A DNA stretch of 23,271 nucleotides from an uncultured Desulfobacterales bacterium (lineage in GTDB: Bacteria > Desulfobacterota > Desulfobacteria > Desulfobacterales > JAFDCJ01): positions 1 through 23,271 of the forward strand of contig CALZJV010000330.1 in NCBI GenBank assembly GCA_945787595.1, in the 5' to 3' direction. The notes beneath the pieces were generated by a model. That model was not told the DNA's origin and ran no database searches. It saw nothing but the letters and a program-made list of their open reading frames with translations. Position numbers and translations under genes: made by a program. This document shows positions 1 through 23,222 of the stretch, one piece after another (position 1 is the stretch's first letter; every line of letters starts with the position of its first letter).

Positions 1-1100
1 TGTTGCAGTTTTTCGGCCGACATCTGTTTGGGGTGATAAACGACCTTGTCGGCGGAGTAATCGTCCCAGTCATAAGAAAAAATCCGGTCCTGCTGTTTGA
101 GATCGTCGTAGGCCTTGGTGTGGGGAAAGGGTGTCAATACGGTAAATTCGGCCAGGTCGAGCTCGATTTCAAGCAAAAAATCCACCAGGCGCTTGATAAA
201 ATCTTCGCTATGATGGTCCAGCCCGAGGAGGATAGTGCCTTCGACCCCGATGCCGTGATCGTGGTAGCGCTTGATCCTTTCACGGATTAAATTCGAGGTG
301 TCAAATACAGCCTGGTAGACATACCATGCCCCGGCCTGGGCTGCCAGATCGAGTACCTCCGGTTTATCCTCTATGGGATGGCTACACCATTTTTTCTTCA
401 AAGGTATCATTTCCCGAAACAATTCCAATTCCCATTGGGTATCCTGGGCCAGGGAGTTGTCGACGATAAACAAACGATTGTTGTCGATGCCGGCCATCTC
501 TTCAATGGCCTTTTCAATGGGCCGCGGTCTGAATTGTTTCCCGCCCAGATAGGCGACGGCGCAGGGATAACAGTGAAAACGGCAGCCTCGCGAGGCATGC
601 ACCAGGTCTACCATCTGAATGCCTTTGTAGTTATACAGATCTCGCTTCAGGATATCCCGCCGGGCACTACCGATTGTTTCAATCGGCGGCCGGTCCTCCA
701 GACAGTTATATATTTTTTGAAGCTGGCCGGCTTTAAAATCCGCCAGGACCTGCTCCATTTTTCCCTCGGCTTCTCCGATAAAAACGGCGTCTGCATGGCT
801 CATCGTTTCTTCGGCATGGAGCATGGTGGAAATACCGCCGAAAATGACCTTGACGCCTTTGTTGCGATAAATGTCGGCAATTTGCCAGCCGCGTTTAACC
901 TGCACGGTCAACATCATGGATATCGCGACCAAATCGGCGGGATCATCAAAATTAATCGGCTCCAGATTTTCATCGATAAATGCCACCTCGAAGTCATCCG
1001 GCAGTGCTGCCGCAAAAACAACCGGCCCGTGGGGTGGTAAATGGAACTCGTTCTGTCGGTCAAGTTTGGGCCATTTTGGATAGATCAGTTTAACTTTCAT
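1..1100 (-). CDS. B12-binding radical SAM protein (3' end cut by window edge)
   Basis: The minus-strand frame starts at ATG 1100-1098 and stays open to the window edge, about 366 codons, so the C-terminus is missing. The N-terminus (MKVKLIYPKWP...) is an opening typical of cobalamin-binding radical SAM proteins, and a Rossmann-like B12 domain fills roughly residues 1-135. The radical SAM core follows with the CX3CX2C cluster motif in HASRGCRFHCYPCAVAYLGG, which binds the 4Fe-4S cluster that cleaves SAM. Family members methylate unactivated carbons or rearrange lipid and polyketide skeletons; the substrate here is unknown. It lies on the same strand as the DUF3261/LolA pair but 307 bases downstream of it, so co-transcription is uncertain. 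Family assignment is strong, function is inference. Confidence 0.85.
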   Translation of the reverse strand, partial: MKVKLIYPKWPKLDRQNEFHLPPHGPVVFAAALPDDFEVAFIDENLEPINFDDPADLVAISMMLTVQVKRGWQIADIYRNKGVKVIFGGISTMLHAEETMSHADAVFIGEAEGKMEQVLADFKAGQLQKIYNCLEDRPPIETIGSARRDILKRDLYNYKGIQMVDLVHASRGCRFHCYPCAVAYLGGKQFRPRPIEKAIEEMAGIDNNRLFIVDNSLAQDTQWELELFREMIPLKKKWCSHPIEDKPEVLDLAAQAGAWYVYQAVFDTSNLIRERIKRYHDHGIGVEGTILLGLDHHSEDFIKRLVDFLLEIELDLAEFTVLTPFPHTKAYDDLKQQDRIFSYDWDDYSADKVVYHPKQMSAEKLQ

Positions 1101-1407
1101 AAACGAACCTGTTTCGGTTTTTGCATTTTAGAAATCCACAACTTTGGGGCGTAGACACGGATAAATGATTTTTTTTACAAACTCGAAAAATTCCAAATTC
1201 CAAGGACCAAAAAACAAATAAATCTCAAATTCCAATTTTCAATGACCAAATTTTTTTGCCTGCATCGGGCTCCGCCGAGTCATATTTTGAATTTAGTACC
1301 TATTTATTGAAATCACATCATGTTTGCGCATGATTTATACCATAGCCAGATTGAATATTTTAGGAATGCTATCGATTTAAATTGAAAAGACAGAGCGAAG
1401 CGATACC
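1101..1407. other. Non-coding gap with AT-rich intergenic repeat
   Basis: No gene is visible. Bases 1189-1250 carry an AT-rich repeat of the 'aaattccaa / caatgaccaaa' type, which recurs as an inverted pair at 2735-2880 and in part at 16030-16070. A small palindrome (atcatg, loop, catgat) lies at 1317-1334. A promoter for the radical SAM gene at 1-1100 would have to lie here, but I cannot name a convincing -35/-10 pair. Confidence 0.5.
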
Positions 1408-2109
1408 TCAAATCTTCAATCTTAAATCGTCAATATTCAATTCCGGCTTGTCCGGGTTAGGCAGTTCCATGATCAGGGTATAGCCCGCACCATCATGCGC
1501 CCTTAATTCGAGCCGGTCGGGAAAATCAGGCCCGTCACCGTCAGATTCCTGTTGGGTGAAAAAAGCATCGACTGTGCGGCTTAACCGCTGTTGTGCAGTG
1601 TATTGTCTGATGTGCCAGGTGTGATCGACATCGATCACGAGGTCAACGATTCGTCCATCCCGATTTTGATAACGACAGACGGATGACTTGTTCGGGTCGC
1701 TGCCGGTTTCCACCAGGGGTCCTGGCGGCATAAAAAATATCAACTGAATATCGCTGATAAGGCCGGCGGCAAAATCCTCATTGTCAAATGGTGCAACCGC
1801 CCGGTTGATGACAAGTCGTTGATCATAGCGGGCATCAAAAACCACCAGCCCTTCAATCGTCATGAGAACACAATGGGCGCTTTTGTCCCGCGAAGATATG
1901 ACGGTCGCGCCCATGACCAAACCCCTGTGCCCGCCCGGCATCACGGCTTCAATCGAATGCACAAACTGCCATTTACCGCTGGGAAACAGTCGATGGCATG
2001 TTTGCGGCAATTCCCCCCGAACGGCATGATATGCGGGTTGCAAGCCCGGCAGCGTGCTGCATGAAATCAGGATACACCCGATACACAACGATAGACACAA
2101 AGTTTTCAT
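1408..2109 (-). CDS. DUF3261-type outer-membrane lipoprotein
   Basis: This 233-residue protein has a lipoprotein signal peptide: hydrophobic residues 3-15 and a lipobox LISC with the acylated Cys at position 17. The body contains MTIEGLVVFDARYD, which resembles the conserved core of DUF3261. That family is known mainly as the small lipoprotein of aryl polyene clusters, encoded next to the MMPL exporter and LolA-like gene, and is thought to help place the product at the outer membrane. Its start overlaps the stop of the LolA-like gene by four bases (ATGA, 2106-2109), so the two are translationally coupled. There are no catalytic motifs. The lipoprotein call is firm; the family call rests on motif resemblance plus context. 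Confidence 0.75.
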   Translation of the reverse strand: MKTLCLSLCIGCILISCSTLPGLQPAYHAVRGELPQTCHRLFPSGKWQFVHSIEAVMPGGHRGLVMGATVISSRDKSAHCVLMTIEGLVVFDARYDQRLVINRAVAPFDNEDFAAGLISDIQLIFFMPPGPLVETGSDPNKSSVCRYQNRDGRIVDLVIDVDHTWHIRQYTAQQRLSRTVDAFFTQQESDGDGPDFPDRLELRAHDGAGYTLIMELPNPDKPELNIDDLRLKI

Positions 2110-2726
2110 GAAATTTTCCGGAAAATGGAATCCTGCAAGGGCTGGTTGAGAATAGCGTTTTTAAATTCAAATCGGGTGTATGAATTCTCGCCTTCGTAGA
2201 TCATCACCGCTGCTATAATTCCGGGGCGGTCGGAAAGAATGAGTTCGATGCGTTGAATCACGGTGGCAAGGCTTTTTTCTTTGGGCCGCAGCACGATTTT
2301 GCGGCCGGGCTCCAGACTTGCACTAAAAGCCGGATTTTCTTCAAATCGGCCACTCAACCACTGGGTAATGTCCTGTAAAACCAACTGCATGGACTGCAGA
2401 TGGGCCCCCTCGTCCTCGATAATGGCCCCGTTTCTCTTGAGGTAACGTTTTGTTCTGCCGTCATGCATGAGCAGAATACTTTGAACCGGGGAGCGATACT
2501 CCCAGCGTAGTGAATTGGGAGCCTGGAAATAAAAAATCCCCTTGGAAACAAGCGGCCTGGCAAGGATTTCCATGTGTTTTTCCTGCACGAATTCAGCCCT
2601 GACGGATGTGACAGTTGAAGCCGTTTTTTTGATGCCCTCCCAGGTGTCGGCCCAACCGAGGCACAGGAATGCGGTGAGCAGAAAAAGGACTTTTATTAAA
2701 AAATAGGGTTTTTGTGTTTTTTTCAT
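2106..2726 (-). CDS. LolA-like periplasmic lipid carrier
   Basis: This 206-residue protein has a Sec signal peptide (KK, then hydrophobic FLIKVLFLLTAFLCLGWA, cleavage near residue 26). The rest matches the LolA/outer-membrane lipoprotein carrier fold: TSVRAEFVQEKHMEILARPLVSKGIFYFQAPNSLRWEY is the typical strand-rich N-terminal half ('F.Q.k......p....G.f.f..P..lrW.Y'). LolA-like proteins carry acylated cargo across the periplasm. Variants in aryl polyene clusters are thought to handle the polyene lipid rather than lipoproteins. Its stop overlaps the start of the DUF3261 lipoprotein gene. The 226-base gap from fabG contains an inverted repeat, so the pair may have its own promoter. Confidence 0.82.
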   Translation of the reverse strand: MKKTQKPYFLIKVLFLLTAFLCLGWADTWEGIKKTASTVTSVRAEFVQEKHMEILARPLVSKGIFYFQAPNSLRWEYRSPVQSILLMHDGRTKRYLKRNGAIIEDEGAHLQSMQLVLQDITQWLSGRFEENPAFSASLEPGRKIVLRPKEKSLATVIQRIELILSDRPGIIAAVMIYEGENSYTRFEFKNAILNQPLQDSIFRKIS

Positions 2727-2734
2727 GATTTAAG

Positions 2735-2880
2735 AAAATTCCAAGCACTAAAATTTATAAATCCCAAATATCAAATAAATCCCAATGACCAAAATTCAAA
2801 ATCTCAAACAATGATTTGGTCATTGAAAAATTGAAATTTGAGATTTGTTTGGAATTTGATGCTTGTAATTTGGAATTTAA
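2735..2880. repeat. AT-rich imperfect inverted repeat
   Basis: The two halves, about 2738-2805 and 2811-2879, are approximate reverse complements built from 'aaattccaa', 'aaatctcaaa' and 'caatgaccaaa'. The central symmetric segment is 'caatgaccaaa...tttggtcattg'. The same words occur at 1189-1250 and, weaker, at 16030-16070. This looks like a dispersed genomic intergenic repeat. It lies between fabG and the LolA-like gene and could act as an RNA hairpin. Confidence 0.65.
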
Positions 2881-2952: not shown

Positions 2953-3690
2953 CTAGAACATTCCGCCGTTTACGGATATCACCTGCCCCGTAACATAGGA
3001 CGCATCCTCGGAGCACAAAAACCTCACCACCTTGGCTACTTCCTGTGGTTTTCCGATCCGGGCCATGGGTATGGTGGCTTTAATATTTTCCACGGGTGCG
3101 CCTTTTATCATATCGGTTTCGATCAGTCCCGGGGCGACCACATTAACTCGGATTCCCAATCGCGCCACTTCGGATGCAACCGACCGGCTGGCACCGATCA
3201 ATCCGGCCTTGGCTGCGGAATAATTGGCCTGGCCCCGGTTGCCGAGAAGACCGGCGACCGATGCGATGGAAACAATCGCGCCGCGTTTAAGACGAATCAT
3301 TTTTTCAAGCACGGGCTTGGTAACGTTATAAAACCCACTTAAACTAATGTCGATGACCGCATGCCAGTCTTTGCGGGGCATCAAAATAAACAGCCCGTCA
3401 GCCGTAATGCCGGCGTTGTTGATCAGCGCATCAATGGATTCATATTGCTTTAAAATTTCATCCACAGCGCTTTGAGTTTCATCGAAATTGGAAACATCAA
3501 ATTGCATTATGTTACCGTCGGATCCTGCCTTCCTAACCATTTCCAGGGTATTTGCGGCTCCTTTTTCATCCGAATTGTAGTTGACGACCAATCGATATCC
3601 ATCTTTTGCCAACTCGAGGCAGATGGCCTGGCCGATTCCCTTGCTGGCACCAGTAACCAGCGCAAGCTTTTCGCCATGTACTTCCTTCAT
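2953..3690 (-). CDS. fabG: 3-oxoacyl-ACP reductase, FabG-type SDR
   Basis: This classical short-chain dehydrogenase reduces beta-ketoacyl-ACP to beta-hydroxyacyl-ACP with NADPH, the first reduction after each condensation. With the start at 3690 the glycine-rich cofactor motif TGASKGIG is at residues 13-20, NNAG near 91-94, and the catalytic triad Ser144, Tyr157, Lys161 lies in SIASVAG...YSAAKAG. It ends in VTGQVISVNGGMF, the usual SDR C-terminus. Length (245) is normal. An ATG nine bases upstream (3699) is possible, but the GGAG ribosome site overlaps it and is spaced correctly for 3690. It lies in the minus-strand arm beside an ApeP-like dehydratase and presumably serves the divergent ketosynthases, as ApeQ does in aryl polyene clusters. 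Confidence 0.9.
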   Translation of the reverse strand: MKEVHGEKLALVTGASKGIGQAICLELAKDGYRLVVNYNSDEKGAANTLEMVRKAGSDGNIMQFDVSNFDETQSAVDEILKQYESIDALINNAGITADGLFILMPRKDWHAVIDISLSGFYNVTKPVLEKMIRLKRGAIVSIASVAGLLGNRGQANYSAAKAGLIGASRSVASEVARLGIRVNVVAPGLIETDMIKGAPVENIKATIPMARIGKPQEVAKVVRFLCSEDASYVTGQVISVNGGMF

Positions 3691-3751
3691 TATCTGCATC
3701 TCCGTGTAAGATACTATCCCAAGAATCCACTTCTTCCTTTTGGGCGATTAT

Positions 3752-4292: not shown

Positions 4293-4730
4293 CTAACCTT
4301 CAGTATCGGTTTGAAAAAGCTGCAATGAAATTTCTCCGACAATAGCATCACCGATCCGGGCAATGCCTAAAATGTGTCGATAACTTTCATATTCGAATTG
4401 ATTTTCGGCGCTTGTTATGATGCGCTGATTTAATGAAATCGCTCCCACAAAAAACCGGGATTGTTTGATGCCAACCAGCCAGCCTTTCTTCTCGGAATCT
4501 TTGCCGCGTTGTTTGATTCGGACCCAGCCATTGGTGACCGCTGCCGTTTGAGCGACCAGTTCGATTAGAACGAGTGGATTCACGCCATTTGCATCAAAAA
4601 AAGGCCATTGATCGGTAACCGTCGCAGCTGTAACAGCCCTTTCATCATCCATTTCAAGGATTTCATCAATAAGCAACATTCGATCACGTTGGGGCAAAAG
4701 ATCTTCGATTCTGATGCCGTCAGGATTCAT
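4293..4730 (-). CDS. ApeP-like hotdog protein (3-hydroxyacyl-ACP dehydratase)
   Basis: This 145-residue single-hotdog protein begins with IEDLLPQRDRMLLIDEILEMDD, close to the 'llPHR.pMlLiDrv.e.d' opening of the ApeP-type dehydratases of aryl polyene clusters, but with Gln in place of the usual His. The long hotdog helix contains VNPLVLIELVAQTAAVTNGW, with Glu57 and Gln61 at the positions typical of the family. The expected reaction is dehydration of beta-hydroxyacyl-ACP to trans-2-enoyl-ACP. It is the first gene of the minus-strand arm, divergent from the ACP gene across about 290 bases. The pathway has two more dehydratase-fold proteins (8792-9148 and 15076-15948), so a specialised role is likely. 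Confidence 0.82.
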   Translation of the reverse strand: MNPDGIRIEDLLPQRDRMLLIDEILEMDDERAVTAATVTDQWPFFDANGVNPLVLIELVAQTAAVTNGWVRIKQRGKDSEKKGWLVGIKQSRFFVGAISLNQRIITSAENQFEYESYRHILGIARIGDAIVGEISLQLFQTDTEG

Positions 4731-5016
4731 ATTTTTGCCTGTGGACTGCCCAATACTAGGTTGTCAAATTATCAGAGCAACATATTTCGTTCTAATTTTA
4801 AAAGGTTTGAATTTTATCTGAGAAAATGGGCTAAATAGAACTAAGATGCTATCAAAAATATGGTAATTAATGATTGAACGGGTTAAGAAAAAATTATGTT
4901 TTCTCAATTTCAGCTGGATGTGATATTACTATATATATTTGGCACTGTAAAGAAACATGACAAAAACCTCCAATGCCCGGGTGAACGGCACAAGTTTCGC
5001 CTTGGGAAGATCCGAA
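4731..5016. promoter_or_regulatory. Divergent intergenic region, probable bidirectional promoters
   Basis: The gap between the divergent ApeP-like gene and the first ACP gene is distinctly AT-rich, with runs such as atatatattt at 4931-4940. It is the natural place for the promoters of both arms. I cannot mark exact -35/-10 boxes or a regulator site, and no regulatory gene is present in the window. If the ACP starts at ATG 4957 the gap is shorter (4731-4956). Confidence 0.45.
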
Positions 5017-5295
5017 GTGGTAGACAGAATGGAAAAATTATTAAAGGAACTCCAGGTTAAAATTGTTGATGTGTTGAATCTGATTGATGTAGAGCCTGAA
5101 GATATAGGGACCGATGACCGACTGGTGGGCGGAAATCTTGGACTTGATTCCATCGATGTGCTTGAGATGGTTATCATGATCGAAAAAGATTACGGCATTA
5201 AAATCGACAACCGAGAATTGGGCGTAAAAGTGTTTGCCACCCTGGGAACACTCGCCGAATATATTCATAAGAGCTCTCCGGAGTTGCCCAATTGA
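5017..5295 (+). CDS. Acyl carrier protein (first ACP)
   Basis: This small acidic carrier has the phosphopantetheine site in NLGLDSIDVLEMV; the Ser is residue 45 counted from GTG 5017. A 4'-phosphopantetheine arm there holds the growing acyl chain. Helix I (MEKLLKELQVKIVDVLNL) and the helix III region (VFATLGTLAEYIHK) are normal for ACPs. The start is uncertain: GTG 5017 has a gggaag ribosome site at 5004-5009 with good spacing, ATG 5029 is in frame, and ATG 4957 would add 20 residues that do not resemble ACPs. Its stop overlaps the TTG start of the ketosynthase gene (TTGA, 5292-5295), tying it to that synthase. A second, divergent ACP is at 9398-9670. Confidence 0.88.
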   Translation: MVDRMEKLLKELQVKIVDVLNLIDVEPEDIGTDDRLVGGNLGLDSIDVLEMVIMIEKDYGIKIDNRELGVKVFATLGTLAEYIHKSSPELPN

Positions 5296-7390
5296 CCGAT
5301 GTGCGGGTTTACATTTCCGGAATGGGAATCATCTCCTCTCTCGGAAACGGGATATCAAATACCGGAGAAGCACTTCTAAAAAGTCTGGTAGGCATAAGAC
5401 CGCTAACCCTTTTTTCGACAGCCTCCAATCAACCGCTCCCGGTGGGAGAGGCCCCCGGCCCGATTGAAGATAAGTCTCTTCCGCGCACCCACCAGCTCGC
5501 CCGTCTGGCAGCCGATCAGGCCATGGCCAAATCCAGGGAGACGCCGGACGCAGTGGTGATGGGCGTTACGACCGGCGGTATGCTGACGACAGAGGCTTAG
5601 CCCGCCGATACCGCTGCACAGGACCGGCCCTGACTGTTTCTACCGCCTGTTCTTCCGGAACCGCTGCCATAAAAATCGCGCTGGAGATGCTACGCTCCGG
5701 AAGTGTTAAACGGGTATTGGCCGGAGGGGCCGATTCCTTGTGCCGGCTGACATATTACGGGTTTAACGCTCTGCAGCTCGTCGACCCTGACGGCGCGCGG
5801 CCTTTTGATCAAAACCGAAGGGGGATGTCGGTGGCCGAAGGTGCGGCCATGTTGTTGCTGGTCGCAAACGATCCGCACAATGCCGTGGCCGAAATCCTCG
5901 GTGCCGGTTTATCCTGCGATGCGTATCATCCAGCGACACCGCACCCTATGGGACAAGGCGCTCTGGCGGCCATGCAGGCCGCCATTCAGGATGCCGGAAT
6001 TTCGAAGGCCGATATCGACTACATTAACCTGCATGGTACCGGTACCCTGGATAATGATCTTTCCGAAGCCGCGGCTGTCAACACCCTTTATAAGCAGCAA
6101 AAGCCGCTGATGTCATCGGTCAAGGGTGCTTTTGGGCATTCTCTGGCTGCCGCCGGGGCCATTGAAGCGGTTGTCTCCGCCATCAGCATTTCCAACAGCC
6201 TGGTTCCGGCAACCGTCGGATGCAGTCAGCCGGATCCGGATTTAAAGCTGGATCCCGTTATTCAGCCCGCTCAAAGGCCAATCGGCACCGTTCTCTCAAA
6301 CTCTTTCGGGTTTGGCGGCAACAACGCAGCGATTGTTATTAGTGCCTGCGGAAAATACAAACCCAACAGAACTTGCGCTAATACACAGCCAATGGCAATC
6401 CTCGGAAGCGCCTGTACAACCGGGGCAGGAAATACAAGTCAAACAATGAAAGCGATCGCATTTGGCAAAACGTGCGCAGGGATGCTGGGTATTCGGCATA
6501 TATCCGCGAATCTTTCTGCCGCTGAAGTGCGTCGACTTAAACGGTTTCCGCGCCTGGCATTGTCCCTGGCCATTGCAGCCCACGAGAATTCGGGGGAAGG
6601 CGATAACCCGTCGGCGGTTTTTTTGGGCACCGGTTGGGGGGCGCTGTCGGAAACTTCGGATTTTTTAACCCGCCTGTTTGAAACCAATGAGCAGTTTCCC
6701 AGCCCGATAGACTTTATCGGATCGGTTCACAATGCCGCCGCAGGTCAGATTGCCATGCGATTTCAGGCCACAGGCGCCAATATCACCATGACCGGAGGCG
6801 ATTATTCCTTCGAACAGGCAATAATGGCGGCAAGTTATTTATCAAACAGCATTGATGATACCTTTCTGGTTATCGGAGCCGATGAATCGCATCCGCAGCT
6901 TTCGCGGCTATTTGATCGGTCCACTTGCGGGTCAGCGATTTTATCGGACGGTGGTGGCGCCCTGTGTTTAAAAACCGGAACGAACGCGTCCGGATTTACC
7001 ATCCAACCCGTTTTTTTTGAAAGCAGGGAAAATAATCCGGAAGTGATATCCTCTTTGATTCAGCGGCTGGAACAGCCCGGGCAAATTAATGACCGTTACG
7101 GTGTGATTTTGGCAGGACACCCTGCCGCCTGCCGCCGGGAAGGGGAAATGCAGCTGCAAAACCTGCTTTCTCTATCCGGTTGCAATCCCCCCGTGATTGA
7201 TTATCGCAAAATAACCGGGGAGTATGCTTCCGCCTCGGCAGTGGCCGCCGCAATGGCCGTACAATTTTTGCAGGATGGCAAAATCCCCGAAGTCCTTTGT
7301 AATGACAAAGCGGCGGATCTAGGCCAAAAGGGAGTGCTTATTATCGGTACGGGCAACTTTATCACGGCCCTGGAGGTGATGCCGAAATGA
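5292..7390 (+). pseudogene. Ketosynthase fused to chain-length-factor-like domain, frameshifted
   Basis: The first part (TTG 5292 start, VYISGMGIISSLGNG...) runs to VVMGVTTGGMLTTEA and a stop at 5598-5600. The gene resumes in another frame (ARRYRCTGPALTVSTACSSG...) up to 7390. At the junction about 20-30 residues expected in a ketosynthase are absent, so a short out-of-frame deletion, or a sequence error, lies near 5590-5600. The ketosynthase catalytic triad is complete: Cys codon 5648-5650 in STACSSG, His in INLHGTGT, His in VKGAFGHS. After NSFGFGGNNAAIVI a second KS-fold domain begins without a stop. Decarboxylative Claisen condensation of malonyl-ACP is the expected reaction, as for ApeO. 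The gene ends overlapping the radical SAM start (ATGA, 7387-7390). If the lesion is real, the KS half is dead. Confidence 0.82.
6392..7390 (+). other. Chain-length-factor-like KS domain lacking the active-site Cys
   Basis: This is the C-terminal domain, about 332 residues, of the fused synthase. It begins again like a ketosynthase (MAILGSACTTGAG) and contains AVFLGTGWGALSETSDFL and GSVHNAAAGQIAMRFQATGANITMTGGDYSFEQA. The last part aligns with the nucleophile elbow, but Gly-Asp stands where active ketosynthases have Ala-Cys, and no catalytic His motifs follow. This matches chain-length factors, for example ApeC, which pairs with the ketosynthase ApeO in aryl polyene synthesis. Here the two are one polypeptide. 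The frame from 5687 through this domain is intact. Confidence 0.72.
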
Positions 7391-14616: not shown

Positions 14617-14617
14617 A

Positions 14618-15097
14618 TTGAGGCCGAAACCTTTTGTTCCCGAAGTGCTGGACGGCGATCGACGCTACATGCGGGATAAGACCAACGGCCTGGTGTGGCA
14701 CCAATGTGAGTATCGTACACTTTATGCAGATACGGATCGCTCGCAGGTCGTCTACCATGCCAACTATCTGCGCTATTTTGAGTTCGGCCGGGCGTCGCTG
14801 ATGCGCGACACCGCTTATTCGTATCGCGAGATCGAGGAAAACGGCTATATATATCCGGTCATTGAAATCGGTGCCACCTATTACAGCGCCCTTCATTATG
14901 ATGATGCCATCTGGATCCACACCCGTCCTTCGGCACTCGAACGGGTGCGGCTGCAGTTTGACTACCTGATTACCCATGAAAAAACCCATGAAATTATCTG
15001 CAAGGGATTTACGAGGCACTGCGCTGTCAACGCTTCCGGTATTCCCGTGGAAGTAGACGAAAAAACGGCTCATCTATGGAGGATCTTTCCCAAATAG
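14618..15097 (+). CDS. Acyl-CoA/ACP thioesterase, 4HBT (YbgC-like) hotdog
   Basis: The core sequence CEYRTLYADTDRSQVVYHANYLRYFEFGRASLMRD is the 4-hydroxybenzoyl-CoA thioesterase signature, with the catalytic Asp at residue 40 counted from TTG 14618 and the conserved YHANY after it. It should hydrolyse the thioester of the finished or a stalled acyl chain. The C-terminal half (QFDYLITHEKTHEIICKGFTRHCAVNASGIPVEV) is standard. Start: TTG 14618 lies one base after the KS stop and has aaaggggtg upstream; ATG 14669 is the next in-frame ATG and still keeps the catalytic motif. Its 3' end overlaps the next gene by 22 bases. Thioesterases of this family occur in aryl polyene clusters. Confidence 0.87.
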   Translation: MRPKPFVPEVLDGDRRYMRDKTNGLVWHQCEYRTLYADTDRSQVVYHANYLRYFEFGRASLMRDTAYSYREIEENGYIYPVIEIGATYYSALHYDDAIWIHTRPSALERVRLQFDYLITHEKTHEIICKGFTRHCAVNASGIPVEVDEKTAHLWRIFPK

Positions 15098-15948
15098 CCG
15101 AATCTGTTCGACTGCCGGCTCATATCCCTGTTTATCCTTATCTGACGGACCACCGTTTTGAAGGCCAGGTTGTATTGCCTGCAGTGGAAACGATGAAGGT
15201 GCTTGCAGAAACTGCTAAGGTTTTCCGGCCGGATACGGATATCTCCGGCATGAACCATGCACGGTTTGATAAATTCCTTTATATCCCACCCGATACGACT
15301 ATAATTGACGCATTCTGCGACATTGTCATTTATCCGAATGGCGATATCATGGCCACCTTGTTGACCAAAACCCCCTCCCGGAAATCTACTATCGTACGCG
15401 TCAAGGAACATGGTGCCGTCTGCTTTCCATTCCGTAAGCCGGATATACAGCTGCCGCTTGACCTGACTCCAACCCTGGATGGCGTCGGTTTGGAAATACC
15501 GGCTGAAAAAATCTACAGCGACCTTGTTCCATTCGGCAAGACTTACCGTAATATTCACGGCCAACTGAGAATTTCCGAAGACGGGGCAACGGCAAGGACC
15601 CATGCCAGATCTGTTAACACATCTGCCCTTAATTTCGCTGATACAGGATCGCCTTTTCCTCTGGATGCGGCATTTCACGCAGCCTGCGTATGGGGACAGC
15701 GTTATGCTCAGACTGTTTCATTTCCTGTCGGGATTGAAAAACGGGTCATATTCAAACCGACGCAACCCGGCACAACTTATCTGAGTCGAATTATCCCTGT
15801 AAGAAAAAGTGCAGAACGGCTTACGTTTGATATATGGATTTACGGCAAAGACGGTAATCTTTACGAGGGCGTCGGCGGTGTTCACATGCGCGATGTCAGT
15901 GCCGGGCGACTGAAACCGCCGCGGTGGATAAGGGGGGACGTTGCTTAA
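15076..15948 (+). CDS. Stand-alone PKS-type dehydratase (double hotdog)
   Basis: This 290-residue protein carries both signatures of polyketide-synthase dehydratase domains. HRFEGQVVLP (residues 26-35) is the HxxxGxxxxP motif with catalytic His26, and PLDAAFHAA has the DxxxH motif with catalytic Asp197. Length and the two halves fit a PS-DH double-hotdog fold as a free-standing protein. It would dehydrate beta-hydroxyacyl-ACP, so it is the third dehydratase-fold enzyme of the cluster besides the ApeP-like and FabZ-like single hotdogs. It overlaps the thioesterase gene by 22 bases (15076-15097), so they are co-translated. It could act on a branched or modified intermediate that the single hotdogs do not accept; a non-dehydrating isomerase or cyclase role is also possible. 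Confidence 0.78.
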   Translation: MEDLSQIAESVRLPAHIPVYPYLTDHRFEGQVVLPAVETMKVLAETAKVFRPDTDISGMNHARFDKFLYIPPDTTIIDAFCDIVIYPNGDIMATLLTKTPSRKSTIVRVKEHGAVCFPFRKPDIQLPLDLTPTLDGVGLEIPAEKIYSDLVPFGKTYRNIHGQLRISEDGATARTHARSVNTSALNFADTGSPFPLDAAFHAACVWGQRYAQTVSFPVGIEKRVIFKPTQPGTTYLSRIIPVRKSAERLTFDIWIYGKDGNLYEGVGGVHMRDVSAGRLKPPRWIRGDVA

Positions 15949-17108: not shown

Positions 17109-17711
17109 ATGGTTGCTAATTTGTATACAATGAAACTATTGATCTTATTATGCCTAGGGGCTTACGCTGCGGGCTCCGTTAATTTTTCAATCCTGCTTTT
17201 CAAGATGCTGGGAAAGGATGATCCGCGCAACGCTTTCAGCGGTAACCCCGGTGTCGTCAATGTCTATCGACAGGCCGGACTGTCCATGGCTGCGGTGGTA
17301 TGGCTGCTGGATATGAGCCGGGCTTTGGTGGTGGCCTTTATCGCCATACGTCTGCTGCCGGTGGCGCTTGTTCCCTGGGCCGGTCTGGGGCTCATCCTGG
17401 GCAACCGTTTTCCCTGTTTTCATGGTCTGCATGGCGGCAAGGGTGTTGCCAATTATCTCGGCTTTACAACGATTATCTCGCCGGTCGCTGCCGGGTTATC
17501 CGCCCTGGGGTGGCTTTTGACCTATGCCATATGGCGCACCCCTTTTATCGCCTCTTTTGTGATGGTGTTTATCCTGGCTGCGGGAACGATTGCTGCATCT
17601 GAGTATTCTCTAGCGGCGATCGCAGGTGTTGCAGCAACGGCGGTACTGATCTATTACAACCATAAAGCAAACGTACTGGGGCTGGTGCAGCAAGGAGGAG
17701 GAGTGGATTAG
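17109..17711 (+). CDS. plsY: PlsY-like acyl-phosphate:glycerol-3-phosphate acyltransferase
   Basis: This roughly 200-residue polytopic membrane protein has the PlsY motifs: AAGSVNFSILLFKMLGKDDPR (motif 1, usually GSIPfGyl...), FSGNPGVVNVYRQAG (motif 2, usually GSGNpGatNv.R) and GNRFPCFHGLHGGKGVANYLG (motif 3, GH.fp.F..fkGGKGva). The family transfers an acyl group from acyl-phosphate to glycerol-3-phosphate, the first step of phospholipid synthesis. Several motif positions differ from standard PlsY (VN for PF, VV for AT, GNR for GH), suggesting a specialised paralogue that loads the cluster's unusual acyl chain onto a lipid. The start may be ATG 17109 or ATG 17130. It follows the esterase gene by 12 bases. 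Confidence 0.82.
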   Translation: MVANLYTMKLLILLCLGAYAAGSVNFSILLFKMLGKDDPRNAFSGNPGVVNVYRQAGLSMAAVVWLLDMSRALVVAFIAIRLLPVALVPWAGLGLILGNRFPCFHGLHGGKGVANYLGFTTIISPVAAGLSALGWLLTYAIWRTPFIASFVMVFILAAGTIAASEYSLAAIAGVAATAVLIYYNHKANVLGLVQQGGGVD

Positions 17712-18002: not shown

Positions 18003-18350
18003 TCAGGAATCCTTTTTCATTAATTTCTCAACGGTTACCCTCGACGCCCAGCGCAGAAATATCCTGGTATAATCGGCTCCGGCCAGATACATCCCCAGCA
18101 AGAATACCAGGTGTGACAGACCATAGGTAAGCGGACCGCCGATCGCGACGATTAAGGGTTTTTCCAGGTAAATAGACAATGCTCCCAGCGCACCCACCGC
18201 CGGCCAGCCGATGATATAGCTAAAAGCGATAGCTGAAATTCCGAGCACGACCCGCACAGAGGGTTTTTTTTTAAAGGCGCTTAAATCGGCTTTGTCCTCG
18301 ATGGCCGAACGAACATATCTGGTTTCAGCGAATTTTTTGATTATATTCAT
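18003..18350 (-). CDS. Small conserved membrane protein of unknown function
   Basis: This is a 115-residue protein with a charged N-terminus (MNIIKKFAETRYVRSAIEDKADLSAFKKKP) and two or three membrane segments: VVLGISAIAFSYIIGWPAVGALGALSIYL, and PLIVAIGGPLTYGLSHLVFLLGMYLAG. The C-terminus is basic (FLRWASRVTVEKLMKK). I recognise no named domain. The sequence has clean membrane topology and resembles hypothetical proteins I recall from deltaproteobacteria, so I think it is real. It is transcribed against the surrounding genes and flanked by repeat-rich gaps; a link to the pathway is not supported. Confidence 0.7.
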   Translation of the reverse strand: MNIIKKFAETRYVRSAIEDKADLSAFKKKPSVRVVLGISAIAFSYIIGWPAVGALGALSIYLEKPLIVAIGGPLTYGLSHLVFLLGMYLAGADYTRIFLRWASRVTVEKLMKKDS

Positions 18351-19431: not shown

Positions 19432-20151
19432 ATGATGAATGCTAAAATAACTGCTAAAAACTGGGAATTTTTTGATAAAATCTACTGCATCTCATTGGAT
19501 GAACGTGCGGACAGACAAGGAGAGGCCAAACGTCAATTCGGCAAGATCGGGCTGTTGGAAAGAGTCGAATTTGAGATTGTAAAAAAGCATCCGCATAATA
19601 TTGAACAAGGAATATTTGAATCACACCTAACCTGTTTGGAAAAAGGGATCCGGGCCGGCGCCGACACTATTGTCGTATTCGAAGATGATATCCTGTTTGA
19701 ACGGTTCAACCCGGCCGATCTTAAAAATTGTATTGACTTCTTATCGACCAACCACCATTGGAATGCCTTGTATTTTGGGTGTCTGGTATCGGGCAGTAAA
19801 AAAACACAACACCGATCGGTACTGAAAATAAAGTACCGCTGCCTGACCCATGCCTATGTTTTCAGTCGCAAGTTTTCTGAATCGTTGGTTAAAAAATCCT
19901 GGAGTGAAATACCCTTTGATGATTTTCTGTGTTCATTAAATGATGAATTTTATGCTATCTATCCTTCTTTTGCGTTTCAGAGCAATTCGCGTTCGGATAA
20001 CATCAGGTTTTTACCATTGGACAAATTTAGAAGATTATGTGGCGGGCTGCGGTGGTTACAAAAAGGAAACGAGCTCTACCATCACCGCCGAACACCGGTC
20101 ATCCTGCTGCATATTATTATTATCCTGCTGATCCTCATGTTGGCTTTATGA
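19432..20151 (+). CDS. Glycosyltransferase family 25 (LPS-type) with C-terminal membrane anchor
   Basis: This 239-residue protein opens with FFDKIYCISLDERADRQGEAKRQF, the GT25 N-terminal pattern ('vyvInLdrr.dR...'). It has ESHLTCLEKGIRAGADTIVVFEDDILF, with the EDD metal/nucleotide-sugar motif at residues 84-86, and LTHAYVFSRKFSESLV, as in LOS glycosyltransferases. The last 20 residues (PVILLHIIIILLILMLAL) form a membrane anchor, unusual for the family. It should transfer a sugar to a lipid or LPS acceptor at the inner membrane. Its stop overlaps the start of the exporter gene (ATGA, 20148-20151), which suggests it glycosylates the exported product. The start may be ATG 19432 or the next codon, ATG 19435. 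Confidence 0.82.
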   Translation: MMNAKITAKNWEFFDKIYCISLDERADRQGEAKRQFGKIGLLERVEFEIVKKHPHNIEQGIFESHLTCLEKGIRAGADTIVVFEDDILFERFNPADLKNCIDFLSTNHHWNALYFGCLVSGSKKTQHRSVLKIKYRCLTHAYVFSRKFSESLVKKSWSEIPFDDFLCSLNDEFYAIYPSFAFQSNSRSDNIRFLPLDKFRRLCGGLRWLQKGNELYHHRRTPVILLHIIIILLILMLAL

Positions 20152-23100
20152 AATCGCCTGAAATCCATTGGCACCGATTGATTTTAATACTGCTTATTGT
20201 GGTTATTTTATTCGGTATTGGTTTATATCGAATAGAAATTGATTCGGATATTGTCGCTTCTCTGCCTGAAGGTGATCCGGTAATTTCGGATGCCGTCTAT
20301 ATTTTTAAAAACCACCCCCTTCAGGATCAATTGCTCATTGATGTCAGCCTTCAAAACGACGACCTGGAAATTCTACTTGAATGCGGCGAACTGGTCGAAA
20401 ACAAATTAAACGACAGCGGGTTGTTTAAAAATGTCGGCCTAAAAGATGTTCAAAATCTCATACCTGATTTATTGGCGTATGTTGTAGAAAACCTGCCGGT
20501 CATGTTTAGCGCAAAAGAGCTTGAAAAAAAGATCGAACCATTGCTGGAATCCGATCAAGTTCAAAAAAGACTGCAGGCCATTTATTTGCAACTGCTGGAA
20601 ATGGAAGGAATCGGGCAGGCAGAATTCATCTCAAAAGATCCTTTGGGGCTAAAAAATTTAATTTTGGCCAGACTATCACACCTGGCTCCATCTCAAAGTG
20701 CCCGCATATACAGGGGAAAACTCATATCTGCTGACGGTAGACATCTGCTTGTCATCGCCAATCCCATCGCCTCTAGTACGGATACGACCTTCGCCCGCAA
20801 GGCCGCCGAACTTATTGATAATCTGGCTGATGACCTGAATCGGAAATATTCCGAAGCGGGGTACGGCATTACGCTGACCCCCACTGGAGCATACCGGGCG
20901 GCCCTGGATAATGAGCTTATCATAAGACAGGATGTTAAAAACGCTATCCTGCTGGCCACCATCGGCATTGCAATTTTGCTCATATTTGCTTTCCCAAGAC
21001 CTCTCATGGGGCTGCTGTCCCTATTGCCGGCGATGGCCGGATCGATGATCGCATTTTTTGTTTTTACATTGCTGCACAAATCGATTTCGGTCATGGTGCT
21101 CGGTTTTGGCGGCGCAATCATTTCGATTACCGTCGATCACGGGATAGCTTATCTACTTTTCCTGGATCGCCCTTATAAAACTCATGGCAGAGAAGCGTCT
21201 GCAGAAGTCTGGGGTGTGGGGCTGCTGGCCGCCTTGACAACTGTGGGCGCTTTCGGTGTGCTTTCCATCAGTGGTTTCCCGGTATTTGAGCAACTCGGGT
21301 TATTTACGGCCCTGGGAATTGCATTCTCATTTCTATTTGTTCATTCTGTTTTCCCGAAGGTTTTTACGGCCATGGCGCCTGCCCGCCCAAGGCGTCTACC
21401 GCTTGAAAATGTTGTCAACACGCTGGCACTAACCGGAAAAAAAGGAGCTTATGCGGCCCTGGGAGTTGTTATTGTCATGCTTTTTTTCGCAAAACCCGGA
21501 TTCAATGTAAGTCTGAGCTCCATGAACACCGTAAGCAAGGAAACTACCGCAGCCGAAAATCTGTTTGCCGACGTGTGGGGCAATATTTTTAGCAGGATAT
21601 ATTTGATGACCGAAGGCCCAAGCGTCAAGGAGCTTCAGAAAAAAGGCGACAGCCTGCTGGCTATGATGGATGCGGACATGCACTCGGGCGTTCTGTCTTC
21701 AGGTTTTGTTCCTTCGATGATATTTCCGGGCAAAGATCGCAGGCAACAAAATTTCGCGAATTGGAAAGAATTTTGGAACCGGAGCAGGGTTCGCCGGTTT
21801 AAACGTGTGATGGCAGAGGCATCGATTAAACCGGGTTTTACGGCCGATGCGTTTAAGCCATTTTACAAACTACTTGCCCCGGACTTAAACCCGCCGGCAG
21901 ATATAACGATTCCTGAAAAATTTTACAGTCTGATGGGAATAACTAAAAGTTTGGAAGGATCGAGATGGATTCAGTTTTGCGGTCTGACTACCGGTGAGTC
22001 TTATCAGGCTGACAGGTTTTTTGAAAAATATCAATCTGCAGGCAAACTATTTGATCCGACCTTTTTTTCGCAAAAACTCGGCAGGCTTTTATTTACCACA
22101 TTTACAAAGATGTTGGTGATCATCGGTATCAGCGTCACCATTCTCTTGTTTTTATTCTTTTTCGACTGGAAATTAACCGTTATCTCACTGTTGCCGGTTT
22201 TCTTCGCCTTAATCAGCACCCTGGGCACCTTGAACCTTATCGGCCACCCGCTGGACATTCCGGGGTTAATGCTTGCCATTATTGTCATGGGTATGGGTAT
22301 CGATTATTCACTGTTTTTTGTCAGATCCTATCAGCGCTATGCGGATGCATCTCATCCGTCTTACGGTCTCATCCGTATGGCGGTTTTCATGGCGTCCGCA
22401 TCAACGCTTATCGGGTTCGGAGTTTTATGCACGGCCGAGCACTCGCTTTTAAGAAGCGCCGGATTAACGTCATTGTTCGGCATCGGCTATTCCCTTATCG
22501 GCGCTTTTGTCATTCTGCCGCCTGTTTTAAAATATGTGTTTCAATCCCGGCAAGAAGATATCAGCCAGGCCGCCGATCTTCATGATCGTATTTTGAGACG
22601 ATACCGAAACATGGAAGCGTATCCGAGAATATTTGCCAGGCTTAAAATTCGTTTGGATCCCATGTTTTCAGAACTGCCCCGTATTTTTGGATTCTCCCGG
22701 CAGCCCCGGACAATTATTGATATCGGCTGCGGTTTCGGCGTACCGGCCAGCTGGTTGATTGAAAATTTTGCCGAATTGAAAATCTATGGTATTGATCTTG
22801 ACAGCAATCGGGTCAGAATAGCCTCCAGGGCACTCGGACCAAGAGGCGTGATCGTGCACGGCCGGGCACCGGATCTACCACGAATTCCGCATTTGGCCGA
22901 TGCCGCCGTCATGCTGGACATGTTGCATTATTTAAAAGATGATGATTTAGGACTCACGTTATCGCGGTTGGGTGACGGACTTTGCGATAACGGCCACCTG
23001 ATAATACGAGCCGTTGTAGTGCCGAATGCGCGGCAGTCCTTGTTCTGGTGGCTGGAGAATCTCAAAAATAAAATTAGGAGAATCACCGCCTATTATCGCT

Positions 23101-23222
23101 CCTTTGATGAGATATCAACGATTCTGACTCAAGCCGATTTTACGATTGAGCATACTGAACCGTCGGGACCCAAAGGGGATTTAGTTTGGTTTGTCCTGAG
23201 GCGCAGGAGCCGGAACCATTAG
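20148..23222 (+). CDS. MMPL/RND exporter fused to a C-terminal SAM methyltransferase
   Basis: This is a 1024-residue protein. The start ATG 20148 overlaps the glycosyltransferase stop. Residues 1-820 form an RND/MMPL exporter: TM1 near 10-27 (LILILLIVVILFGIGL), a large periplasmic loop, a first membrane block with ISITVDHGIAYLLFLDR, a second periplasmic loop, and a second block with IVMGMGIDYSLFFVRSY, which carries the conserved Asp of the proton relay. After the last membrane segment (FGIGYSLIGAFVILPPVLKYV) a soluble domain contains motif I DIGCGFG (858-864) and YGIDLDSNRV, followed by AVMLDMLHYL, a class I SAM-dependent methyltransferase. MMPL proteins export lipids and aryl polyene products; this fusion suggests methylation on the cytosolic face coupled to export. 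The exporter call is firm; substrate is inferred from the cluster. Confidence 0.88.
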   Translation: MKSPEIHWHRLILILLIVVILFGIGLYRIEIDSDIVASLPEGDPVISDAVYIFKNHPLQDQLLIDVSLQNDDLEILLECGELVENKLNDSGLFKNVGLKDVQNLIPDLLAYVVENLPVMFSAKELEKKIEPLLESDQVQKRLQAIYLQLLEMEGIGQAEFISKDPLGLKNLILARLSHLAPSQSARIYRGKLISADGRHLLVIANPIASSTDTTFARKAAELIDNLADDLNRKYSEAGYGITLTPTGAYRAALDNELIIRQDVKNAILLATIGIAILLIFAFPRPLMGLLSLLPAMAGSMIAFFVFTLLHKSISVMVLGFGGAIISITVDHGIAYLLFLDRPYKTHGREASAEVWGVGLLAALTTVGAFGVLSISGFPVFEQLGLFTALGIAFSFLFVHSVFPKVFTAMAPARPRRLPLENVVNTLALTGKKGAYAALGVVIVMLFFAKPGFNVSLSSMNTVSKETTAAENLFADVWGNIFSRIYLMTEGPSVKELQKKGDSLLAMMDADMHSGVLSSGFVPSMIFPGKDRRQQNFANWKEFWNRSRVRRFKRVMAEASIKPGFTADAFKPFYKLLAPDLNPPADITIPEKFYSLMGITKSLEGSRWIQFCGLTTGESYQADRFFEKYQSAGKLFDPTFFSQKLGRLLFTTFTKMLVIIGISVTILLFLFFFDWKLTVISLLPVFFALISTLGTLNLIGHPLDIPGLMLAIIVMGMGIDYSLFFVRSYQRYADASHPSYGLIRMAVFMASASTLIGFGVLCTAEHSLLRSAGLTSLFGIGYSLIGAFVILPPVLKYVFQSRQEDISQAADLHDRILRRYRNMEAYPRIFARLKIRLDPMFSELPRIFGFSRQPRTIIDIGCGFGVPASWLIENFAELKIYGIDLDSNRVRIASRALGPRGVIVHGRAPDLPRIPHLADAAVMLDMLHYLKDDDLGLTLSRLGDGLCDNGHLIIRAVVVPNARQSLFWWLENLKNKIRRITAYYRSFDEISTILTQADFTIEHTEPSGPKGDLVWFVLRRRSRNH

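What the first reader, a model, noticed from the sequence alone, without database searches (positions are those of the whole stretch)
1..23222. Radical-SAM-rich hybrid of aryl polyene and ladderane-like lipid clusters
Seen: three ketosynthases (one fused to a CLF-like domain), two ACPs, FabG, three different dehydratase-fold proteins, a thioesterase, MMPL exporter, LolA-like and DUF3261 proteins (the aryl polyene set), together with four radical SAM enzymes, two of them B12-binding, a PlsY-like acyltransferase and a GT25. Known: aryl polyene clusters make ACP-bound polyenes and export them to the outer membrane; candidate ladderane clusters of anammox bacteria combine radical SAM, KS, FabZ and ACP genes. 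Inferred: this cluster makes a polyunsaturated acyl chain that is then methylated, cyclised or cross-linked by radical chemistry and placed in the outer membrane. I know of no described product with this gene set.
Basis: partly seen in the sequence, partly recalled or inferred. Interest (0 to 1): 0.82.

Follow-up and report, generated by a model that had tools for sequence, protein, structure and literature searches.

The report
Radical-SAM polyene lipid gene cluster
This stretch carries a gene cluster, shared by many oxygen-avoiding bacteria, that probably builds an unusual polyunsaturated lipid and reshapes it with radical enzymes; I found no description of its product.

Summary
The gene list is essentially right, but two of three ketosynthases are frame-broken in this copy (about 70 and 91 nt missing against the closest relative) and the 'DUF3261' call is weak. 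The cluster is real and conserved. Its near-invariant heart is an eight-gene set, DH2-ACP2-rSAM3-rSAM4-KS2-KS3-TE-DH3 (contig permitting: rSAM4 69 of 69 loci, KS2 to DH3 42 of 44), in records labelled Desulfobacterota, Spirochaetes and Myxococcota. rSAM3 and rSAM4 are paralogues of no named family. Around it sit an aryl-polyene/flexirubin-type set and genes shared with anammox ladderane clusters (rSAM_ladder_B12). The anammox-type clusters I fetched lack rSAM3/rSAM4, so this is not a ladderane cluster. New here: an aromatic-amino-acid-lyase-family gene occurs in 11 of 28 rSAM4-bearing genomes but 1 of 367 others of the phylum, sometimes inside the cluster, pointing to an aryl starter in that subset; 28 further genomes, including the window's closest relative, lack it. 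Rattray et al. (2009) described similar clusters in Desulfotalea and Kuenenia; Desulfotalea was not tested. Best reading: an anaerobic, radical-modified polyene lipid built on ACP and exported to the outer membrane. Product and rSAM3/4 chemistry unknown.

The parts
1..1100 (-). rSAM0: B12-binding radical SAM protein, cut by the window's left edge (CRFHCYPC motif)
   Evidence: B12-binding 33.8 bits; best NCBIfam TIGR04013 57 bits, below cut-off; found in 15 of 44 relatives with >9 kb upstream
1408..2109 (-). lipoprotein-like protein beside LolA, at best distantly DUF3261-like
   Evidence: no Pfam/NCBIfam hit for itself; 3 of 10 proteins scanned touch DUF3261, best E 0.041; 11 of 44 relatives
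2106..2726 (-). LolA-type carrier, best NCBIfam model is flexirubin LolA2
   Evidence: PF03548 49 bits; NF053544 LolA2_flexi 96.3 bits (cut-off 125) against 48.8 for housekeeping lolA; 12 of 44 relatives
2953..3699 (-). FabG ketoreductase
   Evidence: NF004200 FabG 307.9 bits over cut-off 273; flexirubin FlxB 306.3 bits, cut-off 340; 44.5% identical to ApeQ; 20 of 44 relatives
4293..4730 (-). DH1: FabA/FabZ-like dehydratase
   Evidence: weak Pfam FabA 16.3 bits; 33% identical to ApeP over 97 aa; 16 of 44 relatives
4957..5295 (+). ACP1 acyl carrier protein
   Evidence: PF00550 39.8 bits; 36 of 44 relatives
5292..5600 (+). KS1 N-terminal piece, before the frame break
   Evidence: 86% identical to L001; about 70 nt missing after 5597 against L001
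5603..7390 (+). KS1 C-terminal piece fused to a chain-length-factor-like domain
   Evidence: Pfam KS N/C domains; one ~720 aa frame in relatives; in L008 the CLF half lacks the catalytic Cys and His; 20 of 44 relatives
7387..8742 (+). rSAMB12: B12-binding radical SAM protein, family TIGR04072 rSAM_ladder_B12 (CHFKCVYC)
   Evidence: 409.5 bits, curated cut-off 360; 30 of 44 relatives with >9 kb upstream
8792..9148 (+). DH2: ApeI-like dehydratase (core)
   Evidence: PF22818 ApeI-like 45.2 bits, cut-off 28.5; 64 of 68 relatives
9398..9670 (+). ACP2 acyl carrier protein (core)
   Evidence: PF00550 33 bits; 66 of 68 relatives
9676..10743 (+). rSAM3: radical SAM with a C-terminal CC-x5-C-x2-C motif (core)
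   Evidence: PF04055 28.4 bits, cut-off 29.5; invariant Cys 45, 49, 52, 284, 285, 291, 294 in 24 rows
10898..11896 (+). rSAM4: paralogue of rSAM3 (core)
   Evidence: PF04055 33.3 bits; 84% mean column identity over 21 rows; 69 of 69 relatives; hhalign with rSAM3 E 5e-34
11913..12077 (+). KS2 N-terminal piece, before the frame break
   Evidence: three-frame translation; about 91 nt missing near 12047 against L001
12068..13072 (+). KS2 C-terminal piece (core)
   Evidence: FabF-like 271 bits; 42 of 44 relatives
13351..14616 (+). KS3, intact ketosynthase with Cys-His-His (core)
   Evidence: FabF 373 bits; active site; 42 of 44 relatives
14603..15097 (+). TE: YbgC/FadM-type 4HBT thioesterase (core)
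   Evidence: TIGR00051 79.8 bits over cut-off 68.7; 42 of 44 relatives
15076..15948 (+). DH3: PKS-type dehydratase (core)
   Evidence: PF14765 PS-DH 35.5 bits; faint similarity to the C-terminal part of the PfaA model, 18.4 bits; 42 of 44 relatives
17109..17711 (+). PlsY-like glycerol-3-phosphate acyltransferase
   Evidence: PF02660 107.8 bits; 27 of 44 relatives
18003..18350 (-). small protein of unknown function, conserved neighbour
   Evidence: family c13, 22 of 36 relatives with >9.5 kb downstream
19432..20151 (+). GT25 glycosyltransferase
   Evidence: PF01755 34.6 bits; 8 of 36 relatives
20148..23222 (+). MMPL/RND-type exporter fused to a C-terminal methyltransferase
   Evidence: PF03176 53.5 bits, PF13489 37.8 bits; 12 of 36 relatives

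Best explanation
The window holds most of a radical-SAM-rich type II polyene/fatty acid cluster of an anaerobic bacterium close to Desulfosarcina. Mechanism, mostly inferred: the KS/CLF, KS2 and KS3 with FabG and the dehydratases, and no enoyl reductase among the window's annotated genes, build an ACP-bound polyunsaturated chain. The paralogous pair rSAM3/rSAM4, encoded between ACP2 and KS2, together with one or more B12 radical SAM enzymes, change the carbon skeleton (methylation, ring closure or double-bond rearrangement; which one is unknown) while the chain is on ACP2. The thioesterase and PlsY-like enzyme release it or move it to glycerol. The MMPL-methyltransferase, LolA and a lipoprotein move it to the outer membrane. 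In a subset of relatives an aromatic amino acid lyase and an AMP ligase probably supply an aryl starter. Shown: gene content, conservation, order, paralogy, lyase association. Inferred: every chemical step and the product.
For: Core DH2-ACP2-rSAM3-rSAM4-KS2-KS3-TE-DH3 conserved. In a draw of 395 genomes of the phylum of G001 that was not selected for rSAM3, 28 have rSAM4 at 635-706 bits, the next tier (at most 138 bits) is rSAM3, and 25 of the 28 show rSAM3 on the same contig at E <= 1e-30; 5 of 193 genomes of the phylum of G009, a Myxococcota-labelled record, have rSAM4. rSAM_ladder_B12 over its cut-off. LolA and FabG lean to flexirubin models, below their cut-offs. Catalytic triad intact in KS3 and in L008's KS1 and KS2, CLF without it. 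Lyase with the Ala-Ser-Gly motif in 11 of 28 rSAM4-bearing and 1 of 367 other genomes; Fisher p 3e-13, or 4e-12 without the query's own genome (10 of 27), both ignoring kinship; on the rSAM4 contig within 46 kb in 7 of 18 genomes, beside ApeJ-, ApeK- or AMP-ligase-like genes in some.
Against: No product or enzyme activity is known. The cluster-type lyase is absent from 28 of 28 further genomes searched, the closest relative's among them, so an aryl head group is unsupported for the window itself. LolA, MMPL and the DUF3261-like gene lie near the core in only part of the loci (12 of 44, 12 of 36, 11 of 44). L032 and L063 have no KS2-DH3 after rSAM4, and L060 and L065 no DH2-ACP2 before rSAM3. 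This copy has two broken ketosynthases. AlphaFold models of rSAM4 and rSAM3 are poor (mean pLDDT 63 and 60).
Confidence: 0.55

Rival explanations
1. It is a ladderane-type cluster and the product carries fused cyclobutane rings.
For: rSAM_ladder_B12 family hit over cut-off; some relatives add phytoene-desaturase-like and polysaccharide-deacetylase genes as in anammox-type clusters.
Against: The anammox-type clusters in five genomes lack rSAM3/rSAM4; in the one annotated in full (L119) the B12 enzyme is paired with a SPASM radical SAM that shares only generic radical SAM similarity with rSAM3/4. The window has no match to desaturase-like, polysaccharide deacetylase or AMP ligase queries, though its left flank is cut. 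Rattray et al. found no ladderanes in D. psychrophila, whose clusters they called syntenic to Kuenenia (PMC2649909).
Confidence: 0.05
2. It is an anaerobic polyunsaturated fatty acid or hydrocarbon synthase (Rattray's proposal): all double bonds are made during elongation or by radical SAM/desaturase-like enzymes, and the product is a long polyene chain without new rings or branches.
For: FabG and three dehydratases without an annotated enoyl reductase; DH3 faintly like the C-terminal part of the PfaA model; D. psychrophila makes C31:8 and C31:9 hydrocarbons (PMC2649909, lipid section read).
Against: Does not account for B12 radical SAM enzymes, methyltransferase, LolA/MMPL export or the lyase link. 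Whether D. psychrophila carries rSAM3/rSAM4 was not tested.
Confidence: 0.2
3. It is an ordinary aryl polyene cluster adapted to anaerobes; the radical SAM genes only replace oxygen-dependent or SAM-methyltransferase tailoring of the head group.
For: Matches to KS, CLF, KR, DH, ACP, TE, LolA and MMPL of the E. coli APE cluster; lyase and AMP ligase in relatives.
Against: The closest relative's genome has no such lyase and the window has no match to a lyase, ApeH, ApeJ or ApeD; identities to APE proteins are 21-45%; rSAM4 is more constant than the LolA, MMPL or KS-CLF genes.
Confidence: 0.2
4. In this organism the cluster is decaying or misassembled and makes nothing or only part of the product (this can be true together with the other readings).
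For: Two separate frame-breaking gaps in KS1 and KS2.
Against: dN/dS against L001 in the broken genes (0.13-0.23) is within the range of intact neighbours (0.06-0.40), so the lesions are recent or assembly errors.
Confidence: 0.2

Closest known systems
FASII/radical SAM gene clusters of Kuenenia stuttgartiensis and Desulfotalea psychrophila (Rattray et al. 2009, PMC2649909)
   Same: KS and KS-like genes, ACP, FabZ-like dehydratase, FabG, B12 radical SAM of family TIGR04072, MMPL-type membrane protein; some relatives of the window add phytoene-desaturase-like, polysaccharide deacetylase and AMP ligase genes
   Different: anammox-type clusters examined lack rSAM3/rSAM4; the annotated one pairs the B12 enzyme with a SPASM radical SAM; the Desulfotalea genes were not available to compare
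Aryl polyene (APE) cluster of E. coli CFT073
   Same: KS, CLF, KR, two dehydratase types, ACPs, thioesterase, LolA, MMPL
   Different: no radical SAM gene annotated in the E. coli cluster; window has no match to ApeH, ApeJ, ApeD or ApeB; CLF fused to KS1; rSAM3/4 core extra
Flexirubin cluster (NCBIfam FlxB, LolA2)
   Same: LolA scores best and FabG second best with flexirubin models
   Different: both below the curated cut-offs; other flexirubin genes were not searched for
Pfa polyunsaturated fatty acid synthase
   Same: DH3 has faint similarity to the C-terminal part of the PfaA model (18.4 bits)
   Different: no multidomain synthase frame in the window; discrete type II enzymes
Jawsamycin-type radical SAM plus iterative PKS (recalled, no call)
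   Same: radical SAM enzyme acting with a polyketide-building enzyme
   Different: not compared by sequence here

Membership tests
Anammox-type ladderane cluster | B12 radical SAM of family TIGR04072 | tested here: met
   409.5 bits, cut-off 360; anammox-type L119 copy 440 bits
Anammox-type ladderane cluster | gene content as in L119: PolyDeac, KS, non-canonical KS, MT, KS, AMP ligase, SPASM radical SAM, B12 radical SAM, FabG, ACP, FabZ, MT, MMPL, desaturase-like, GT | tested here: not met
   window gives no match to PolyDeac, AMP ligase or desaturase-like queries and only a 59-aa radical SAM motif match to the SPASM enzyme; it has rSAM3/rSAM4, which five anammox-type genomes lack. The window's left flank is cut
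Anammox-type ladderane cluster | ladderane lipids in the carrier | not testable with these tools
   no culture; none found in D. psychrophila by Rattray et al. (PMC2649909)
Aryl polyene cluster | KS plus CLF, KR, DH, ACP, thioesterase | tested here: met
   but KS1 and KS2 are frame-broken in this copy
Aryl polyene cluster | LolA, MMPL and DUF3261 export trio | tested here: inconclusive
   LolA and MMPL found; DUF3261 touched by only 3 of 10 proteins at E 0.04 or worse and no match to ApeN
Aryl polyene cluster | aryl starter supply (lyase and/or AMP ligase) | tested here: not met
   no match in the window; cluster-type lyase in 0 of 28 genomes, but in 11 of 28 rSAM4-bearing genomes of the phylum draw. 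The E. coli APE cluster has no annotated lyase either
Radical SAM superfamily (rSAM3, rSAM4) | CxxxCxxC motif and PF04055 | tested here: met
   motif invariant in 24 and 21 rows; rSAM4 33.3 bits over the Pfam cut-off, rSAM3 28.4 just under 29.5
Any named NCBIfam radical SAM subfamily (rSAM3, rSAM4) | score over a curated cut-off | tested here: not met
   best hits 25.6 and 29.8 bits, cut-offs 400 and 490
Pfa PUFA synthase | multidomain PfaA-type synthase | tested here: not met
   only discrete proteins in the window

The most novel reading that the evidence does not exclude
rSAM3/rSAM4 are a new two-enzyme radical machine that reshapes an ACP2-bound polyene, in some lineages an aryl polyene started from an aromatic amino acid, giving a structurally new class of exported lipid or pigment shared by anaerobic Desulfobacterota, Spirochaetota and Myxococcota.
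Probability: 0.35. Interest if true: 0.82.

Novelty: new variant of a known kind. Interest (0 to 1): 0.6.

Why it matters
Ladderane biosynthesis is unsolved, and a 2016 test of Kuenenia candidate genes in E. coli did not succeed (PMC4790861, abstract and passages seen). This family shares the B12 radical SAM gene with that pathway but also occurs in records labelled Smithella, Desulfosudis oleivorans (a MAG) and strain NaphS2, so radical chemistry on an ACP-bound chain may become testable outside anammox bacteria. The near-invariant eight-gene set names the enzymes to test first, and the lyase link predicts an aryl group in one subset and gives no support for one in the window's nearest relatives.

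Tried and rejected
Viral contigs searched with rSAM4: 3 stretches matched a pattern, none a relative. PDB sequence search with the rSAM4 profile: only two weak hits, 6efn (SkfB) and 5v1q. AlphaFold models of rSAM4 and rSAM3 too poor; a Foldseek search of the rSAM4 model gave general radical SAM hits, TM-score at most 0.41 among the 50 rows shown, and is not used; the rSAM3 model was not searched. PDB searches with ACP2, DH2, the B12 radical SAM and the lyase gave general family members only. The E. coli collection was read for an APE yardstick; the first stretch missed the cluster. The Planctomycetota label of L002 is doubted: its rSAM4 is 89% identical to the window's and sits beside Desulfobacterota-labelled rows in the tree, so a misbinned contig is likely. 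Four lone rSAM4-like proteins (31-33% identity) in genomes of that phylum have no cluster genes in the 14-19 kb read around them. The idea that every such cluster is aryl-primed was rejected. Eight paper searches gave no characterised product for this gene set; most subscription journals are not covered. antiSMASH, BiG-SCAPE and cblaster could not be run. Rfam was not searched.
Full report
What is in the window. Minus strand: a B12-binding radical SAM protein cut by the left edge (rSAM0), a lipoprotein-like protein, LolA, FabG, DUF456 and a weak FabA/FabZ-like dehydratase (DH1). Plus strand: ACP1, a ketosynthase fused to a CLF-like domain (KS1-CLF), a B12 radical SAM protein over the cut-off of TIGR04072 'rSAM_ladder_B12' (409.5 bits, cut-off 360), an ApeI-like dehydratase (DH2), ACP2, two tandem radical SAM proteins (rSAM3, rSAM4), KS2, KS3, a YbgC-type thioesterase, a PKS-type dehydratase (DH3), a PHA-depolymerase-like esterase, a PlsY-like protein, an FMN_bind protein, GT25, and an MMPL protein with a C-terminal methyltransferase.

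Two ketosynthases are broken here. Against L001 (a Desulfosarcina-labelled MAG, about 88% identical) the window lacks about 70 nt in KS1 and about 91 nt in KS2, and each gap shifts the frame. Relatives have a single KS1-CLF frame of about 720 aa and a KS2 of about 416-423 aa. dN/dS against L001 is 0.23 and 0.19 for the KS1 pieces and 0.13 for the KS2 piece, within the range of intact neighbours, 0.06 to 0.40. So the lesions are recent or are assembly errors; I cannot tell which, since no genome is held for the window and no reads were available.

The conserved unit. A protein search with rSAM3 gave 2048 homologues at E <= 1e-3 among 3822 candidates, of which 120 are listed. A genome-contig scan with 24 aligned rSAM3 sequences found 304 stretches encoding a relative; the best 80 were kept. 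Counting only loci whose contig reaches far enough: rSAM4 69 of 69, ACP2 66 of 68, DH2 64 of 68, KS2, KS3, TE and DH3 42 of 44 each, PlsY 27 of 44. Other parts are less constant: ACP1 36 of 44, TIGR04072-type radical SAM 30 of 44, polysaccharide deacetylase 23 of 44, KS1-CLF 20 of 44, FabG 20 of 44, DH1 16 of 44, rSAM0 15 of 44, LolA 12 of 44, DUF3261-like 11 of 44, phytoene-desaturase-like 5 of 44, MMPL-methyltransferase 12 of 36, GT25 8 of 36. Exceptions to the core: L032 and L063 have no KS2-DH3 after rSAM4; L060 and L065 have no DH2-ACP2 before rSAM3; L040 and L045 give no DH2 match; L040 has the parts shuffled; some loci, such as L028 and L044, have genes inserted. The 80 loci are the best-scoring of 304 and were selected by rSAM3, so these counts describe close relatives, not the whole family, and the presence of rSAM3 in them is by construction.

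rSAM3 and rSAM4. They are paralogues (26-30% identity; profile comparison E 5e-34). In 16 of 16 genomes chosen from the loci an rSAM4 lies beside rSAM3. The unselected test is: 28 of 395 genomes of the phylum of G001 (the genome of L008) have rSAM4 at 635-706 bits, and 25 of these 28 show an rSAM3 match on the same contig at E <= 1e-30; G014 has it just above that threshold; for G428 and G779 none is listed. A further genome, G432, has only a 121-bit match. rSAM4 has 84% mean column identity over 21 proteins from records labelled Desulfobacterota, Spirochaetes and Myxococcota. Both proteins have an invariant CxxxCxxC and a C-terminal CC-x5-C-x2-C (rSAM3) or CC-x6-C-x2-C (rSAM4), which would suit an auxiliary iron-sulphur cluster (inference). 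Neither passes a named NCBIfam radical SAM model. Models were too poor to use. A tree of 72 rSAM4 sequences puts the window next to L001 (100/94); the two Myxococcota rows form one group, and the four Spirochaetes rows can be one group, with weak support.

Distribution. Besides, rSAM4 occurs in 5 of 193 genomes of the phylum of G009 (Myxococcota-labelled record). In the phylum of G017, the genome of L002, labelled Planctomycetota, 5 of 392 match at E <= 1e-20: G017 itself, probably a misbinned contig, and four lone distant relatives with no cluster genes near them.

Ladderane comparison. In the same 392 genomes TIGR04072 is over its cut-off in 21. I fetched regions from eight of these genomes. 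Five (G111, G191, G281, G357, G381) share one arrangement as far as tblastn shows. In the copy annotated in full (L119, ACP) it reads PolyDeac-KS-noncanonical KS-MT-KS-unknown-AMP ligase-SPASM radical SAM-TIGR04072 radical SAM-FabG-ACP-FabZ-MT-MMPL-desaturase-like-GT. This follows the numbering from kuste3351 to kuste3335 in Table 2 of Javidpour et al. 2016 (PMC4790861, passages seen), with the small ACP kuste3350 not detected. All five carry a hydrazine synthase alpha domain, but so do G215, G042 and, weakly, G009, so the marker is not exclusive. None of the five is among the rSAM4/rSAM3 hits at E <= 1e-20, and the SPASM radical SAM shares only generic similarity with rSAM3/4. The window gives no match to the desaturase-like, AMP-ligase or polysaccharide-deacetylase queries, but its left flank is cut, and some relatives have such genes further out. 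The window's cluster is therefore related to ladderane clusters by shared genes, but is not one. Rattray et al. 2009 (PMC2649909; abstract, first part of results and of discussion, lipid section and one review read) reported syntenic clusters in Desulfotalea psychrophila, which made no detectable ladderanes but C31:8 and C31:9 hydrocarbons. I did not have that genome's genes. A 2023 paper reports antiSMASH 'ladderane' clusters in Desulfobacterota MAGs (PMC9902471, passages seen).

Aryl polyene comparison. Against the E. coli CFT073 APE genes the window's proteins match ApeQ (44.5%), ApeO (42% over the KS1 piece), ApeR, ApeC, ApeP, ApeE, ApeF, ApeI, ApeK, ApeL and ApeM, all at 21-45% identity. 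ApeA, ApeB, ApeD, ApeG, ApeH, ApeJ and ApeN give no match to the window. The CLF half, read in L008, lacks the catalytic Cys and His. LolA scores 96 bits with flexirubin LolA2 and 49 with housekeeping LolA; FabG scores 306 bits with flexirubin FlxB and 308 with a FabG model; both flexirubin scores are under the curated cut-offs. The DUF3261 call is weak.

A new link. L040 holds a gene of the aromatic amino acid lyase family (PF00221, 512 bits), and an AMP ligase, among the cluster parts. With that lyase as query, 12 of 395 genomes of the phylum have a match of 550 bits or more, with a gap down to 392 and then 304 bits. Eleven of the 12 are among the 28 rSAM4-bearing genomes, one among the other 367; Fisher p 3e-13. 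One of the 11 (G020) is the genome the query came from; without it the count is 10 of 27, p 4e-12. Both tests treat genomes as independent, which they are not. In a set of 46 rSAM4-bearing genomes, 18 have it, 7 of them on the rSAM4 contig, from 2.4 to 46 kb away. The 18 come from records labelled Smithella, Desulfosudis, Spirochaetes and Myxococcota, among others. Next to it lie ApeJ-, ApeK-, LolA- or AMP-ligase-like genes in several. Eight lyases compared keep the Ala-Ser-Gly that forms the MIO cofactor in this family (recalled) and read 'FH' (5 of 8), 'YH' (2) or 'QH' (1) at the site that I recall as substrate-selecting, so substrate choice is open. Against this for the window: of 29 further loci asked, 28 genomes were held, and 0 of 28, L001's genome included, had the cluster-type lyase; 7 had weaker matches, the best 280 bits. 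Two genomes of the window's own branch, G002 and G003, have 43-45% identical lyases, G003 on the cluster contig 25 kb away.

How it probably works. KS/CLF elongation with ketoreduction and dehydration but no annotated enoyl reductase would leave a polyene on ACP. The position of rSAM3/rSAM4 between ACP2 and KS2, and their constancy, suggest that they act on the ACP2-bound chain. B12 radical SAM proteins are often methylases (general knowledge), so methyl branches are likely where they occur. Thioesterase and PlsY-like proteins suggest transfer to glycerol; LolA and MMPL suggest passage to the outer membrane. All of this is inference from family membership; the product is unknown.

Verdict. A real, widespread variant of the known FASII/radical SAM clusters for which I found no characterised product, with an unexpected conserved radical SAM pair and a lineage-dependent link to an aromatic amino acid lyase; this particular copy may be damaged.

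Noticed in passing
5597 and about 12047: Two frame-breaking gaps of about 70 and 91 nt against L001, each inside a ketosynthase gene.
   Followed up: partly
9254-9315: 31-nt tandem duplication (94% identical) between DH2 and ACP2.
   Followed up: no
1188-1239 and 2827-2878: 52-nt inverted repeat, 85% complementary, flanking the DUF3261-like and LolA genes.
   Followed up: no
17712-18800: Long stretch with little coding sequence and simple repeated motifs such as 'ccagtatccagcatc' and 'ggaatgatggaatgg'.
   Followed up: no
23217-23265: 49 nt at the window's end match L001:4144-4191 in inverse orientation at 90%, possibly an interspersed repeat.
   Followed up: no
16122-17096: Protein over the cut-off of NF050058, an extracellular short-chain PHA depolymerase type 1; in 3 of 36 relatives only.
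   Followed up: no
18003-18350: Small protein of unknown function that recurs beside the cluster in 22 of 36 relatives.
   Followed up: partly
L002: Record labelled Planctomycetota carries a Desulfobacterota-like cluster contig, probably misbinned.
   Followed up: partly
L082-L085: Lone radical SAM proteins 31-33% identical to rSAM4 in four genomes of the Planctomycetota-labelled phylum, without cluster neighbours.
   Followed up: partly
L121, L122: Clusters with the highest TIGR04072 scores (551 and 542 bits) together with an rSAM0 orthologue at 56-58% identity, LolA and MMPL, in two genomes of the same phylum.
   Followed up: no
L093, L136 (G003:C46): A second KS/CLF/ACP set, a lyase and an AMP-ligase-like fragment about 20-25 kb from a window-type cluster.
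   Followed up: no
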